Shown: positions 4,624-12,411 of the stretch, one piece after another | How positions within the stretch are numbered: position 1 is the stretch's first letter | How the letters are laid out: each line of letters starts with the position of its first letter | Source: Mucilaginibacter gilvus | Lineage (GTDB): Bacteria; Bacteroidota; Bacteroidia; Sphingobacteriales; Sphingobacteriaceae | Direction of reading: 5' to 3' | Length of the DNA: 64,000 bases | Assembly (NCBI RefSeq): GCF_004054195.1 | Contig: NZ_SBIW01000003.1 | Span: 682,001-746,000, forward strand | The notes under the pieces: generated by a model | Database searches by the model: none | Told to the model about the DNA's origin: nothing | Seen by the model: the letters and a program-made list of their open reading frames with translations, nothing else | Made by a program: the position numbers and the translations under genes

Positions 4624-6594
4624 TTGAAAACTTTCTCTGCCACCTTGCGCCCATTTTTACGGGCATCAGTCATACTTATTTTATTGCTCAGCACTTTTGC
4701 TGTTAACCATGCATTTGCGCAGGCTGAAGTGGAGCCATGGGGGAATATTACCGGCATCCGAAATAAAGGACAGCTTTACGGTTTCGAGACCAGCCTGCGG
4801 GTGATTGGCGCTAACGGTAAACGTATGGCCGCAACGGCCAAAGAAAAGCAGTCGCCCAAGTATAGCCGCAGGGGGGATGACCAGATCGTAGTTACCCGGA
4901 TAGACAGCCTGTTTTTCAGCCAAACCGTTACTGATGCGGGTTCCGGTAAAATAAAGGTGAATGTGCAGGTGATAGCTAAAAAGGATACCGCCTTAAAGGG
5001 TGTTTTCTTTTGCATTACATTGCCCGTAGCGGAGTATGCCGAGAGCCGCCTGCGGTTGGCCGGGGTAAAAGAAGATTCGCTAAAACAATATGCGCCGGGC
5101 TTTGCCAATAGCTTTGTAAGTGTAAAGGCCAGGGGCGTGGAATTTACCGCTGCCACACGGAAATTAAAGGTGAGTTTTGATGAGCCGGAGATGGTTATTG
5201 TACGTAAGGATTCGGTAGGTAATCTGCAACTGTACGTCCCGCTTGCGCTGAATGAGGTGCATCGCGGCGATGTAATAACTAAAACGCTAAGTATTAAAGC
5301 CGAGGGACTGATAGATACGCAACCGGTTAACCTGGTTATCAATACCGCACAGCCGGGGCGTGAGTTCGCCGGACTTGGCGGTAACTTCCGCTTGCAGAAC
5401 CCGAAGACCGACCCGCAGGTAATAGACTACAGCCTGCAAAACCTGCGCGTAGCCTGGGGCAGGGTAGAAATGCCCTGGCGCTTTTGGCAACCCGAAAAGG
5501 ATATTGACCCCACAACAGAAGCAAACAATGGCAAACTGAACCCTTTTGTGTTAAAATCCATGCAGATGGCGCATAGGTTGGATAGCATGGGCATTCCGGT
5601 GATCCTGTCGGCATGGTCGGCACCCAACTGGGCTATTGTTGGCCCGCCACGCTTTAGGCCAACGCCTCAAGGTGTTTGGGGCAACCCGCTGGATCACACG
5701 CAGGACGAAGCTATTTACAAATCTATAATCAACTACATTCTTTACCTGAAAGCCAAATACGGTTTCGAAGTGAAAATGTTCTCGTTCAACGAATCGGACC
5801 TTGGTATAAACATTCGCCTAACGGGAGAGGAGCACCGCGATTTTATTAAAGGGCTTGGCGCGTATATGGCCTCCAAAGGCCTCCATACCAAATTATTGCT
5901 GGGCGATAACTCGGACGCGACAACATATAAGTTTATATACCCGGCAATGGACGACCCAGCCACCAAGCCCTATATCGGCGCGATATCTTTCCACTCGTGG
6001 AGAGGGTGGGATAACGTTACCCTGCAAAAATGGGCGGATGCCGCTACCAAAATGAATGTGCCGCTAATTGTGGGTGAGGGCAGTATAGATGCCGCCGCCT
6101 GGAACTATCCCGACATTTTTCAGGAGCAAACCTATGCGCTTGAGGAGATAAACCTGTATACCCGTTTGCTGGCCATCTGCCAGCCGGTTTCTATATTGCA
6201 ATGGCAACTCACTGCCGATTACTCTCCACTAATAGGCGGTGGTATTTTTGGCAACCCCGAACCGCTGCACCCGGGGCAGCGGTTTTGGAATTTAAAGCAG
6301 CTTTCCACTACGCCCAAAGGGTTATTTGCCATGCCGCTAAGTGTGGATCGGCCCGGAATTTCCGCCGCAGCTATGGGCGATAACAGTAAAGGCATTTATG
6401 CCTTGCAATTGGTAAATAACGGCAGCACGCGCGAAGTAAATTTAACCGGACTGCCGGCGAAAATTGTACGGCTTCGTTATTATATCACCAACAGGAAAAC
6501 CAATATGAAAGAAGAACGCGCTGTGGAGGTAAAAGATGGTGCGGCGAAGTTTAAACTGCCGGCTGTAAGTTATGTGAGCCTGATAAGCGAATAA
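4624..6594 (+). CDS. Secreted glycoside hydrolase, clan GH-A (GH30-like)
   Basis: A 656-residue exported enzyme. Residues 1-33 form a signal peptide ending at FAQA. The first 235 residues are a beta-rich region. From about 247 (FAGLGGNFRLQ) a TIM-barrel glycosidase domain begins: RVEMPWRFWQP (280-290), ILSAWSAPNWA (327-337), FSFNESD with likely acid/base E390, and IVGEGS with likely nucleophile E485. A final beta domain (about 570-656) matches the sandwich that accompanies GH30 barrels. Substrate cannot be told from sequence. The start is TTG, since no ATG or GTG precedes the signal peptide. It stands alone between two terminators or gaps. Confidence 0.75.
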   Translation: MKTFSATLRPFLRASVILILLLSTFAVNHAFAQAEVEPWGNITGIRNKGQLYGFETSLRVIGANGKRMAATAKEKQSPKYSRRGDDQIVVTRIDSLFFSQTVTDAGSGKIKVNVQVIAKKDTALKGVFFCITLPVAEYAESRLRLAGVKEDSLKQYAPGFANSFVSVKARGVEFTAATRKLKVSFDEPEMVIVRKDSVGNLQLYVPLALNEVHRGDVITKTLSIKAEGLIDTQPVNLVINTAQPGREFAGLGGNFRLQNPKTDPQVIDYSLQNLRVAWGRVEMPWRFWQPEKDIDPTTEANNGKLNPFVLKSMQMAHRLDSMGIPVILSAWSAPNWAIVGPPRFRPTPQGVWGNPLDHTQDEAIYKSIINYILYLKAKYGFEVKMFSFNESDLGINIRLTGEEHRDFIKGLGAYMASKGLHTKLLLGDNSDATTYKFIYPAMDDPATKPYIGAISFHSWRGWDNVTLQKWADAATKMNVPLIVGEGSIDAAAWNYPDIFQEQTYALEEINLYTRLLAICQPVSILQWQLTADYSPLIGGGIFGNPEPLHPGQRFWNLKQLSTTPKGLFAMPLSVDRPGISAAAMGDNSKGIYALQLVNNGSTREVNLTGLPAKIVRLRYYITNRKTNMKEERAVEVKDGAAKFKLPAVSYVSLISE

Positions 6595-7352: not shown

Positions 7353-8462
7353 CTATTGCTCTACGCGAGGTATAGGACGGAAAATACGATTCCAGCGGAT
7401 CTTCTTAAAGAAAGACTGAGTGCTATCGATACTCATCCAGGTGATCACGGCTTTACCTACAATATGATCTTCGGGTACAAAACCCCAAAAACGCGAATCT
7501 ACGGAGTTGTGGCGGTTATCGCCCATCATCCAATAATAATTCATTTTAAAGGTGTAGTTGTCGGCTTTTTTATCGTTGATGAACACTTCTTTACCTTTAA
7601 TTTCCAGTTTATTGTGCTCGTAAACCTCGATGGCCCGGCTGTATAGTGCAACGGTGCTATCATTTAGTTGGATAACGGTGCCTTTTTTAGGGATCAATAT
7701 AGGGCCATAATTATCTTGGTTCCATTTAAACAGAGCGTTTTTCGGGAAAACTTGGGAGTCAACTTCGCCCTTCGGCTCATTTACCTGTGTGACAGATTTT
7801 ACATTAGAGAAGTTTTTCACCTGCGAATAGCTGTCGGTAGGTATCACCATTTCGTAGGTGCTTGTGCCATCAAAACCTCTTACTTCTACATGCAGATCGG
7901 TTAAAACGTCCTGATTTAATGGAGTACCGTTGGTGACTACTAAGTAAGATGTTTGTGCTTGTGGCGCGTTTTTTACAATTTTTCCGTCGGTATATGCTTG
8001 TCCGTTAACTATGGTAACGGTTTCGCCGGGGAGCCCAACGCAACGTTTTATATAATGCACACGCATATCTACCGGGCGGGGGACAGTTTCGGCAGGATAG
8101 TTAAATACAACCGCGTCGCCTTTTTTTACATCGCCCAAGCCCGGCAGGCGGTAGTAAGGTAGCTGAATGCCGTCCCAATAAGTTTTCATGTTACCATATA
8201 TGGTCGATTCTGTAAACGGAATGGCTACAGGTGTCATCGGCATACGGGCACCGTATGATAATTTGCTTACAAACAGGTAATCGCCGGTCATCAAACTACC
8301 CTCCATAGATGCGGAAGGAATAGCAAATGCCGAAAATAACAGGCCGCGAATAATGGTTGACGCGACCAGTGCGAACAAAATTGCATCGATCCACTCACGG
8401 GTTTTGCTCTTTTTTGGCTTTGCCGTATCCGTTTTTTTGCGCGATAAGAATTTCCAGTTCAT
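7353..8462 (-). CDS. lepB: Signal peptidase I
   Basis: The 369-residue S26 peptidase cleaves signal peptides from exported proteins at the outer face of the inner membrane. After a basic N-terminus, one transmembrane helix spans about residues 25-46. Box B follows as IPSASMEGSL with catalytic S52. Box D is YIKRCVGLPGE with the general base K139, and box E is MMGDNRHNSVDSRFWG (312-327). It is longer than E. coli LepB (324) because of an insertion between boxes D and E (about 165-290), as is common in Bacteroidota. It is divergent from the glycosidase gene at 8590. Confidence 0.95.
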   Translation of the reverse strand: MNWKFLSRKKTDTAKPKKSKTREWIDAILFALVASTIIRGLLFSAFAIPSASMEGSLMTGDYLFVSKLSYGARMPMTPVAIPFTESTIYGNMKTYWDGIQLPYYRLPGLGDVKKGDAVVFNYPAETVPRPVDMRVHYIKRCVGLPGETVTIVNGQAYTDGKIVKNAPQAQTSYLVVTNGTPLNQDVLTDLHVEVRGFDGTSTYEMVIPTDSYSQVKNFSNVKSVTQVNEPKGEVDSQVFPKNALFKWNQDNYGPILIPKKGTVIQLNDSTVALYSRAIEVYEHNKLEIKGKEVFINDKKADNYTFKMNYYWMMGDNRHNSVDSRFWGFVPEDHIVGKAVITWMSIDSTQSFFKKIRWNRIFRPIPRVEQ

Positions 8463-8589
8463 AGCTATTGTGGTATTAATTTAGCGTTCCTTACTCATTT
8501 AGAGCCTAACATACGAAAAATGTTACAGTCACTGGGATGATTTTTAGCCATAATTTGTAGATTTAGGGCACCTATTTTATATCAACCCT

Positions 8590-10223
8590 ATGTTACGACG
8601 TAATTTTATCAAACTCTCCGCCGCATCCATGGCGGCAGTAATGTATAGCAGAATCACGTTTGCCGCCGATAGCGGCTTCGCACTCATTAACCATCCCGAC
8701 GAAGCCTGGATAGAACTGGCAGAGGGTTGGGTAAAGCTTACCGGTGCCGGTGGCTCAGTTTATACGCACAAAGATGTGCGCGTAGAAGTTAAAAGCGCGG
8801 GCAACGCGCAATCGGTTTACGTGCAGTCGCCAACAGCGGCGTTGATGGCTGTTCGCTTCAAGTGGAAATATGAGACCAAAAAGTATTCGAAAATATTGGG
8901 CGACCATTGGGAACGCACTTACGGCGACCTTGCCTGGAAGAAACCTGAAGCAAGCGCTAAAAACCCCTGGTATGTTTTGCTGCATGATGATAAGCAAACC
9001 GCGGCATTTGGTGTGAAAACAGGCGGCAATACTATTTCCTTTTGGAACGTAACCGCAGATAGTTTAGAGCTAACGATGGATACCCATTCGGGGGGGCGGG
9101 CGTAATGCTTGGTCAGCGGAAACTGCATACAGCGGATATTGTAACCAACATGAGCGCCCCTAACGAAACGCCCTATGCAACGCTGACCCGCTTTTGCAAG
9201 ATAATGTGCCCAAAACCACGGCTGCCTAAACAGCCTGTTTATGGCATCAATGATTGGTATGTGGTTTACGGGAACAACTCTTTCAATTCCATAAAAGAGC
9301 AGACAACCGTGATGAGTGGTTTGGTAAGCGATACGAACAACCGGCCCTTCTCGGTAATTGATGATGGCTGGCAGCAACCGGATGATTTTAGCATAGTGAA
9401 CGATAAGTTTAAGGACATGCATAAAATGGCAGACGAAATAAAGAGCCATGGCATGCGCCCCGGTTTGTGGACACGCCCGCTGATTGCCCGTAAGGACGAT
9501 AGTGCCTCACTGCTGGCTCCAAAAATACCGGGCCGTGGCCAAACGGGTGAACTTATACTCGACCCAACCCTGCCCGAAACCATTGAACGCGTAAAACACA
9601 ATATTAGCCTTTACAAACAATGGGGCTACCACATGGTGAAGCACGACTACAGCAGCTACGATATTTTCGGTAAGTGGGGTATGCAGATGACCGACGGGCT
9701 CACTGCGCAGGGTTGGAAATACCACGACCAAAGTAAAACCAATGCAGAGATCATCAATAATTTGTACAATGCAATCCGGCAATCGGCAGGTGATATGTAT
9801 ATCATTGGCTGTAACACCATGAGCCACTTATCTGCCGGCGTGTTTGAACTGAACCGTACCGGCGATGATACCAGCGGTAAAGAGTGGGCCCGTACAAAAA
9901 AAATGGGGGTGAACACCTTAGGTTTCCGCCTGCCGCACCATAATACTTTTTATGCTGCCGATGGCGACTGCGTTGGCCTTACCAAAGATGTACCTTGGGA
10001 TAAGAACCGCCAATGGCTGCAATTGCTGGCAGAAAGCGGTGCGCCGCTGTTTATCTCTGCCGAACTGGATATTTTAGATGCTGATAAAAAAGCTGCCATT
10101 AAAAAGGCCTTTGCCGATGCTGCCAAAGTGCAGCCAACCGGCGAACCGCTTGACTGGCTGACCGAACAATGGCCGGCTAAATGGAAATTGAATAATCGGG
10201 AGGTTACCTTTAACTGGGATTGA
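8590..10223 (+). pseudogene. Alpha-galactosidase-like glycosidase (GH27/GH36 type), frameshifted at a G7 tract
   Basis: Two frames encode one protein. The first (8590-9105, 171 residues) has a Tat-like leader, RRNFIK then a hydrophobic stretch, and a beta-rich domain. It ends HSGGRA-stop just after seven G residues at 9090-9096. The second (9105-10223, 372 residues) starts in TAATG overlap and holds the clan GH-D barrel: FSVIDDGWQ, GMRPGLWTRP, KHDYSSYD with probable nucleophile D181 of that frame, and RTGDDTSG with probable acid/base D254/D255. Adding one G to the tract joins the frames as HSGGAGVMLGQ to give 544 residues. Mutation, phase variation or a sequencing error are all possible. Confidence 0.75.
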
Positions 10224-10250
10224 TAAATAATTGATGAATTTTACTTTTTT

Positions 10251-10395
10251 ATGGAAAGCAAAGCACTCAGCCTTGAGCAGATTGCGCAGTATCAGCGTGA
10301 CGGCTATCTCGTGATCAAACAATTTTGCAGCGACGCCGAGATAGAAAAACTCTACAGTACCGCCCTTAATGATGACGCTATGCGCAAGAATGATT
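10251..10395 (+). pseudogene. 5' fragment of a phytanoyl-CoA dioxygenase (PhyH) family gene
   Basis: The first 47 codons, starting MESKALSLEQIAQYQRDGYL and continuing VIKQFCSDAEIEKLYSTAL, match the start of PhyH-type Fe(II)/2-oxoglutarate dioxygenases (QI..Y..DGYLVI..F.). The reading frame then continues only as junk to 10502, running antisense through the end of the omega-amidase gene. No HxD iron site or later domain is present. It is 28 bases after the broken glycosidase gene, so it may once have been its operon partner. Confidence 0.6.
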
Positions 10396-10426
10396 GCAAT
10401 GATGCATTGACAGGATGTTTGGATTC

Positions 10427-11206
10427 TCAACCTTCCAAACTAAAAGCATCCGCGTCTTTTAGGAACGGTAACGCCCGGCGGATCTTTTTCACTTCGTCGT
10501 AAATGATGGAGAAGGTGTATACGTCTTCTTCGTCGCGTTTGTAATAAACTACATCGCCGTTGGGGCTAATGCAGGTAGAATCGCCGGAATGATAAACCTC
10601 GTTGCCATCGTGGCCTACGCGGTTCACGGCGATAACATAGCTCTGGTTCTCTACCGCGCGGGCGGGGATAAGGGTGCGCCAGTGCAGCGCGCGTCTTTCC
10701 GGCCAGTTGGCTACGATCATTAATACATCGTAATCCTCATCAACATTACGCAGCCATACCGGGAAACGGAGATCGTAACATATTACCGGGCAAATTTTCC
10801 AGCCATTTATTTCTACTATAAGTTTTTTGGTGCCTGCTGTGTAAGTATTATGTTCTTTGCCAAGGGCAAAGAGGTGTCGCTTGTCGTAATGCTCGTAGGT
10901 GCCGTCGGTTCGCATCCAAATGAGGCGGTTATAAAATTTACCATCCTCTTTGATAATAATGCTGCCGGTTACCACGCAATCATACTTAATAGCGGTATCG
11001 TGCATCCATTTCATCGTTTTACCGCCCATGTTTTCGCCCAAAGCTTCGGCATTCATAGTAAAGCCGGTGTTAAACATTTCTGGCAGAATAATGAGGTTGG
11101 TTCTTTCGCGGATGTTGGATAACCTTAGCGAGATATTCTGCAGGTTTTTATCAATGTTCTCCCAAAATAAATATCCCTGGTAAACGGTAACTTTAAGATT
11201 ATCCAT
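10427..11206 (-). CDS. Omega-amidase, nitrilase superfamily (YafV/Nit2-like)
   Basis: The 259-residue enzyme belongs to the carbon-nitrogen hydrolase fold. The catalytic triad is visible as E43 (LPEMFNTGF), K109 (YDKRHLF) and C143 (VICYDLRFP). YafV-type enzymes hydrolyse alpha-ketoglutaramate or the alpha-keto acid omega-amides formed by glutamine transaminases. The gene lies 56 bases downstream of a YbdL-like transaminase on the same strand, which is the expected partner, so both steps are probably made from one transcript. It is cytoplasmic. The PhyH fragment overlaps its 3' side antisense. Confidence 0.88.
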   Translation of the reverse strand: MDNLKVTVYQGYLFWENIDKNLQNISLRLSNIRERTNLIILPEMFNTGFTMNAEALGENMGGKTMKWMHDTAIKYDCVVTGSIIIKEDGKFYNRLIWMRTDGTYEHYDKRHLFALGKEHNTYTAGTKKLIVEINGWKICPVICYDLRFPVWLRNVDEDYDVLMIVANWPERRALHWRTLIPARAVENQSYVIAVNRVGHDGNEVYHSGDSTCISPNGDVVYYKRDEEDVYTFSIIYDEVKKIRRALPFLKDADAFSLEG

Positions 11207-11262
11207 AAGCGGTGTTTTTTGAGCAACGGCTGGTAAATGTATACGTAAATATTTACTAAAGG

Positions 11263-12411
11263 TTAAACCTTTAACAACCTATCAACGGCTTTATCGATAG
11301 TTTCTTGCCTTTTGGCGAAACAAAATCGCAGTACATGCTTGTCGGTACCCTTGCGGTAGAACGCCGAAACAGGGATAGAAGCCACCCCAATTTCCTTGGT
11401 TAAACGTATGGCATAGTCCGAATCTTTCTCATCGGTAATGGCATCATAGGTAACCGATTGGAAGTATGATCCCGCGCACGGCAGCAGTTGAAAACGTGTA
11501 TTTTTAAGTCCTTCGCGGAAGTAATCTCGCTTTTGCTGAAAAAAATCCGGCAGGCTTAAATAGGTGTTCTCGTCTTTTAAATATTCGGCAATGGCGTGCT
11601 GCATCGGCGCATTCACGCTGAATATCAAAAACTGGTGGATCTTCCTGAACTCCGTCATGAGGTAGGCTGGGGCGAGGCAATAACCCATCTTCCAGCCGGT
11701 AGCATGGAACGTTTTGCCAAACGACGATACAATAAAGCTGCGCTGCTGTAGTTCGGGGTAGCGGGCCATGCTGTGGTGCGTTTCGCCGTCGTATATCAGG
11801 TGCTCGTACACCTCGTCGCTCAGTATCAGAATATCCTGGTTTTTTACCAGGGCGCTTAGTTCGTCGATATCCTCCTTACGCAAGATGGTTGCTGTGGGGT
11901 TATGTGGCGAATTGAGGATGATCATTTTTGTTTTACCGTTGATGAGGCGTTTCACCATATCCCAGGCAATGCGGTAATCGGGCGGGTCCAGTTCTAATGA
12001 CTTCACCACGCCGCCCATCAGTTTAATGGCAGGGGCATAGCAATCATAAGCCGGTTCAAAAATGATCACCTCATCATTGGGATTTATCACCGCGCTGATA
12101 GCTGTGAACACGGCTTGCGTGCCCCCTGCGGTAACAGTAATTTCGGTATCGGGGTTATAAACGGCACCGTAAAGTTTTTCGGTTTTAATAGCAATTTGCT
12201 CGCGCAGGGCCATCAGGCCGGGCATAGGAGCGTATTGGTTGTGGCCATTTTGCATGGCCTTGTTCACCAATTCTACCAATTCGGGCGCGCAATTGTAATC
12301 GGGGAATCCTTGTGACAGGTTAATAGCCCCAAGCTCGGCAGCAAGTGCGGACATCACCGTAAATATGGTGGTTCCTGTTTGGGGTAGTTTAGATATAACG
12401 GGTATCATCAA
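11263..12411 (-). CDS. PLP-dependent methionine/glutamine aminotransferase (YbdL-like)
   Basis: The 382-residue protein is a fold-type I class I/II aminotransferase. It starts with INLSQGFPDYN, has the NSPHNPTATI segment (167-176), DEVYEHLIYDGE, and the PLP lysine K233 in SFGKTFHATGWKMGY. These details are closest to YbdL/MtnE-type enzymes that use methionine or other large neutral amino acids as donors, or the keto acid of methionine as acceptor with glutamine. The neighbouring omega-amidase removes the alpha-ketoglutaramate product and makes the reaction irreversible. The start is one of two adjacent ATGs. Confidence 0.88.
   Translation of the reverse strand: MMIPVISKLPQTGTTIFTVMSALAAELGAINLSQGFPDYNCAPELVELVNKAMQNGHNQYAPMPGLMALREQIAIKTEKLYGAVYNPDTEITVTAGGTQAVFTAISAVINPNDEVIIFEPAYDCYAPAIKLMGGVVKSLELDPPDYRIAWDMVKRLINGKTKMIILNSPHNPTATILRKEDIDELSALVKNQDILILSDEVYEHLIYDGETHHSMARYPELQQRSFIVSSFGKTFHATGWKMGYCLAPAYLMTEFRKIHQFLIFSVNAPMQHAIAEYLKDENTYLSLPDFFQQKRDYFREGLKNTRFQLLPCAGSYFQSVTYDAITDEKDSDYAIRLTKEIGVASIPVSAFYRKGTDKHVLRFCFAKRQETIDKAVDRLLKV

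What the first reader, a model, noticed from the sequence alone, without database searches (positions are those of the whole stretch)
9080..9110. Glycosidase gene split by a one-base loss in a G7 homopolymer
The frames 8590-9105 and 9105-10223 encode consecutive parts of one GH27/GH36-type enzyme. Adding a single G to the run at 9090-9096 joins them in a natural way (HSGGAGVMLGQ). The downstream frame begins with ATG in TAATG overlap, so it could still be translated by re-initiation. A G7-G8 tract is a typical contingency site, and polymerase slippage there would give an on/off switch for an exported sugar-degrading enzyme.
Basis: partly seen in the sequence, partly recalled or inferred. Interest (0 to 1): 0.55.

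Follow-up and report, generated by a model that had tools for sequence, protein, structure and literature searches.

The report
Recently broken sugar-enzyme gene, probably decaying
A gene for a secreted sugar-cutting enzyme in a soil-type bacterium has lost one letter in a run of G's; its relatives carry the gene whole, and the neighbouring gene is broken too, so this looks like ordinary recent gene loss (or a sequencing slip) rather than a built-in on/off switch.

Summary
A G7 run at 9090-9096 ends an exported-protein frame (8590-9105), and a second frame (9105-10223) continues the same protein. Of 46 distinct homologous loci, 45 read straight through the site in one frame; the other is a truncated, frameshifted remnant in another species. 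The two window pieces keep 84 of 85 residues invariant in 24 homologues, and the missing one lies in the shifted stretch. Fold and profile searches place the enzyme beside the GH36 alpha-galactosidase of Thermotoga maritima.

The contingency-switch interpretation is not supported. The run is not conserved (2-6 G in homologues). G7 runs are common in this genome, and fewer occur in the window than chance predicts. Of 63 other G/C runs examined, one C9 case might be a split gene and is unresolved. The next gene, a PhyH-like oxygenase, is also broken: it stops after about 47 codons and is joined to the 3' flank of a nitrilase gene, about 4 kb shorter than in relatives. The best reading is recent slippage loss in a decaying gene pair. 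Evolutionary rates show the loss is very young, so a base-calling error or transcriptional correction cannot be excluded without reads.

The parts
8590..9105 (+). N-terminal piece: Tat-like signal (RRNFIK) and most of the N-terminal beta domain; runs out of frame after HSGG
   Evidence: homologue alignment, placement; Pfam TAT_signal 15.1 bits, below its 22.7 cut-off
9090..9096 (+). G7 run where the frame changes
9105..10223 (+). C-terminal piece: catalytic barrel with both putative catalytic aspartates (codons at 9645 and 9867)
10251..10502 (+). Remnant of the next gene (PhyH-like): about 47 homologous codons, then unrelated sequence reading antisense into the nitrilase 3' end
10427..11206 (-). 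Intact carbon-nitrogen hydrolase; in relatives about 4 kb further from the PhyH-like start
7353..8462 (-). Intact signal peptidase I, conserved upstream neighbour in 8 relatives' loci

Best explanation
The window carries a very recent loss-of-function allele of a Tat-type exported GH36-like alpha-glycosidase. A lineage-specific G run, formed from synonymous codons around Ser-Gly-Gly, lost one base by replication slippage. Translation now stops two codons after the Ser-Gly-Gly motif. The downstream piece could at most be re-initiated as a cytoplasmic fragment that lacks the signal and most of the N-terminal domain. The gene and its co-directional neighbour, a PhyH-like oxygenase truncated by a deletion, are being lost together. 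Shown: the split, the intact homologues, the truncated neighbour, the absence of an intact paralogue. Inferred: slippage as the cause, loss of function, and that the base call is right.
For: 45 of 46 distinct loci are unbroken at this point, with G runs of 2-6. 84 of 85 invariant residues are kept over both pieces; the only miss lies in the shifted stretch. The own genome has one match only, this one, so no intact copy. The neighbour is cut after about 47 codons, with roughly 4 kb missing relative to 4 relatives. Mucilaginibacter aurantiaciroseus L081 holds a 5'-truncated and frameshifted remnant. The gene is dispensable: 13 of 36 same-genus genomes lack a strong match. Of 63 other G/C runs of 7 or more, 30 lie in a long frame that runs through, so homopolymers are not miscalled across the assembly.
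Against: No sign of relaxed selection: pairwise dN/dS to L059 is 0.04 and 0.08 for the two parts (the first with saturated dS), and the window branch has no clear excess of amino-acid changes. So the lesion is either very young or not real. A published analysis of 1106 genomes expected isolated, BLAST-confirmed frameshifts to be sequencing errors rather than genuine indels (PMC3711429, passages).
Confidence: 0.52

Rival explanations
1. Sequencing or assembly error: the genome encodes the intact enzyme and one G was dropped in the run.
For: No other defect in either piece and no relaxed selection. Isolated BLAST-confirmed frameshifts were expected to be errors (PMC3711429).
Against: 30 of 63 other G/C runs of 7 or more keep a long frame open through the run. 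The adjacent gene is truncated independently, which a base-calling slip does not explain.
Confidence: 0.27
2. Contingency switch: replication slippage in the G run turns the enzyme on and off reversibly.
For: The site is a G run and the product is exported; constraint on both parts fits a gene that is often on.
Against: The run is absent from all 45 intact homologues (2-6 G). It is one of at least 43 runs of exactly seven in the genome. The partner gene is dead. C. jejuni contingency tracts are 8-13 bases (PMC3025981).
Confidence: 0.11
3. The frame is corrected at expression: RNA polymerase slippage in the G run gives a share of full-length mRNA, so a broken-looking gene stays functional and constrained.
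For: Fits constraint without decay. Precedent: frameshifts in poly-A/T tracts of Blochmannia and Buchnera genes (PMC3017870, passages).
Against: The precedent concerns long A/T tracts in AT-rich symbionts; here it is a 7-base G run seen in one genome only. No expression data.
Confidence: 0.1

Closest known systems
GH36 alpha-galactosidase TmGalA of Thermotoga maritima (PDB 1zy9, 5m0x)
   Same: N-terminal beta domain plus barrel plus C-terminal strands aligned over 455 residues, Z 33.2, rmsd 2.9; both catalytic-position Asp align in the profile match
   Different: 17% identity; carries a Tat-like export signal; Pfam Melibiase matches only 10 of 24 homologues, weakly; substrate unknown
Ordinary frameshift pseudogene at a homopolymer
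   Same: one lineage, one indel, intact homologues elsewhere, partner gene truncated
   Different: no accumulated decay yet, so very young or an error
Poly-G contingency loci (Campylobacter jejuni)
   Same: G run inside the frame of a gene for an exported product
   Different: run shorter than the 8-13 bases given for C. jejuni, not conserved, no evidence of two states

Membership tests
GH36 / clan GH-D glycosidase | fold of GH36 (beta domain + barrel + C-terminal strands) | tested here: met
   AlphaFold model of the intact L059 homologue, pLDDT 87; 1zy9 Z 33.2 over 455 residues. The window's own pieces were not folded.
GH36 / clan GH-D glycosidase | catalytic nucleophile and acid/base Asp | tested here: met
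   D353 and D427 of L059 are invariant in 24 homologues, present in the window and aligned with 1zy9 chain positions 339 and 399, which I take to be D327 and D387; that offset and the roles of the two residues are recalled, though one search lists a D387A mutant structure
GH36 / clan GH-D glycosidase | Pfam Melibiase score over the gathering cut-off | tested here: inconclusive
   no match for the window pieces; 10 of 24 homologues match PF02065 at E up to 0.1, best 7.4e-6
GH36 / clan GH-D glycosidase | alpha-galactosidase activity | not testable with these tools
   needs assay
Phase-variable contingency locus | tract conserved or recurrently long among relatives | tested here: not met
   2-6 G in all 45 intact distinct homologues
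Phase-variable contingency locus | mixed tract lengths in one population | not testable with these tools
   no reads available
Frameshift pseudogene | intact homologues in relatives, disrupted here, no intact copy in the genome | tested here: met
Frameshift pseudogene | relaxed constraint after disruption | tested here: not met
   no rate increase; compatible only with a very young loss, so the claim stays 'disrupted allele, probably a pseudogene'

The most novel reading that the evidence does not exclude
The G run is a lineage-specific, newly arisen slippery site at which replication or transcription slippage sets the share of cells or mRNAs that make an exported GH36-like enzyme in Mucilaginibacter, a genus for which one literature search found no open-access paper that also mentions phase variation.
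Probability: 0.13. Interest if true: 0.45.

Novelty: new member of a known kind. Interest (0 to 1): 0.14.

Why it matters
Mainly for annotation: the two ORFs should be treated as one disrupted GH36-like gene, not two proteins. The paired damage (frameshifted glycosidase and truncated PhyH-like neighbour) is a small, clean example of a gene pair being lost in one species while kept in most relatives. The weakly Pfam-matching homologues, intact across Mucilaginibacter and beyond, are a sensible target for enzyme assays.

Tried and rejected
Two separate proteins by design: rejected, since 45 of 46 distinct loci encode one chain. One search listed tracts without turning the reverse-strand loci; it was superseded, and one search's values for those loci were dropped. 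Genome-wide homopolymer trouble: of 63 other G/C runs, 30 pass through a long open frame, 18 lie in no long frame, 13 lie near a frame end and 2 look split (these are stop-free frames, so some may be antisense, and frame ends were not checked one by one). Of the two, L171 (C10) is a spurious antisense pair next to an intact gene. L146 (C9) is a Cys_rich_CPCC-domain gene whose upstream frame has no match in the other 37 genomes searched, so it stays open. That the PhyH function is lost with the fragment: not claimed, because an intact PhyH-like homologue lies elsewhere (contig C20), as does a GH92-like gene (contig C16; the GH92 name is recalled from sequence motifs). An assembly chimera at the PhyH/nitrilase junction: no PhyH 3' remnant exists elsewhere in the genome apart from the intact C20 copy, which does not fit a simple misjoin; not excluded. 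Rfam: no match at 8000-11500. Papers: PMC3711429, PMC3025981 and PMC3017870 were seen as passages only; the remaining papers as search listings.

Full report
What is there. The G7 run is at 9090-9096 and the two frames are 8590-9105 (171 aa) and 9105-10223 (372 aa), overlapping in TAATG. The window lies in a 5.42 Mb genome in 31 contigs; its nearest named relatives are Mucilaginibacter. The G7 itself is not remarkable: 1 in the window against 8.18 expected from dinucleotide shuffles, and 132 G7 positions in the genome. The first 100 listed positions form 64 runs, 43 of exactly seven.

One gene, broken here. Searching 60 genomes, its own included, with the C-terminal piece gave strong matches (E below 1e-163) in 23 of 36 same-genus genomes; the other 13 had none or only E about 1e-4. 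The N-terminal piece found the same 23. A scan of genome contigs gave 27 loci. 49 of 50 (45 of 46 distinct) have a single open frame through the site, with the longest G run 2-6 bases. The exception, L081 from M. aurantiaciroseus, begins at residue 97 of the C-terminal piece and changes frame near residue 282: an independent remnant. The two window pieces retain 84 of 85 residues invariant in 24 homologues; the one missing position is in the shifted stretch. The own genome has no second copy.

What the enzyme is. Pfam does not match the window pieces in any family over its cut-off; the N-terminal piece has a weak TAT_signal match. Melibiase matches 10 of 24 homologues weakly. A profile of the homologues matches TmGalA 1zy9 at 1.6e-9. 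The AlphaFold model of the intact L059 homologue (pLDDT 87) matches 1zy9 best (TM 0.68; Z 33.2, 455 residues, rmsd 2.9). Both Asp at the catalytic positions lie in the downstream piece; the break falls in the N-terminal beta domain. A re-initiated product would therefore hold the catalytic barrel but neither the export signal nor most of that domain.

The neighbourhood. In 8 loci the signal peptidase gene is the divergent upstream neighbour (L059, L060, L061, L067, L071, L072, L088, L090). In 7 of these 8 a PhyH-like gene (280-282 aa where read, with an upstream extension in the L059 frame) lies downstream on the same strand, in L059, L060 and L061 not immediately next to it; L067 lacks it. 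In the four loci that show both PhyH and the nitrilase (L060, L071, L072, L090), about 4.2-4.5 kb with a 1009-1015 aa GH92-like gene separates the PhyH start from the nitrilase. In the window this distance is 176 bases. The PhyH-like frame matches for about 47 codons and then runs straight into the nitrilase 3' flank. So the second gene of the pair is a remnant here. Intact PhyH-like and GH92-like genes exist on other contigs.

Age of the lesion. Pairwise dN/dS with L059 is 0.043 (N part, dS saturated) and 0.081 (C part). Unique amino-acid changes on the window branch are not consistently more numerous than on the L059 or L067 branch. Against L059 the C part gave (window v L059) 11 v 26, 20 v 21, 15 v 21, 21 v 11 and 19 v 7 with five outgroups, and the N part 9 v 12, 9 v 14, 10 v 13, 11 v 10 and 11 v 14. 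Against L067 the window was lower in all ten comparisons. The gene was under constraint until recently. This is equally what a sequencing error, a switch or a transcription-corrected gene would show.

Assembly quality and other runs. I examined 63 other G/C runs of at least 7 (all runs in the first 100 of 132 listed positions). 30 pass through a long open frame, 18 are in no long frame, 13 are near a frame end and 2 look split. Of the two, L171 is antisense noise next to an intact gene. L146 has a Cys_rich_CPCC domain starting at profile position 17 of 75 just after a C9 run, with an upstream frame found in none of the other 37 genomes searched. That one is unresolved and is the only hint of another run-associated break.

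Verdict. A recent frameshift in a glycosidase gene whose partner is already truncated is the simplest reading (0.52). A base-calling error is the main rival (0.27). The contingency switch has no positive evidence beyond the run itself (0.11), and expression-level correction none beyond the constraint (0.10). C. jejuni contingency tracts are given as 8-13 bases, and all but one G/C tract of at least 8 there was variable (PMC3025981, passages). An analysis of frame transitions in 1106 genomes expects isolated BLAST-confirmed cases to be sequencing errors rather than genuine indels (PMC3711429, passages). Only reads can decide.

Noticed in passing
window 10251-10502 (+): PhyH-like gene cut after about 47 codons and joined to the nitrilase 3' flank; about 4 kb shorter than in relatives.
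   Followed up: yes
L081 6001-6827: M. aurantiaciroseus carries a 5'-truncated, frameshifted remnant of the same glycosidase.
   Followed up: partly
L146 1253-1811 (-), G000 contig C20 near 554220: Cys_rich_CPCC-domain gene apparently split at a C9 run; the upstream frame has no match in the other 37 genomes searched.
   Followed up: partly
window 4624-6594 (+): Apparently secreted GH30-like protein (Pfam 14.6 bits, below the cut-off of 23); weakly matched by current models.
   Followed up: no
L059-L083 homologues: A GH36-like family conserved from Mucilaginibacter to Verrucomicrobia, Phycisphaerales and Firmicutes loci, poorly covered by Pfam Melibiase models.
   Followed up: partly
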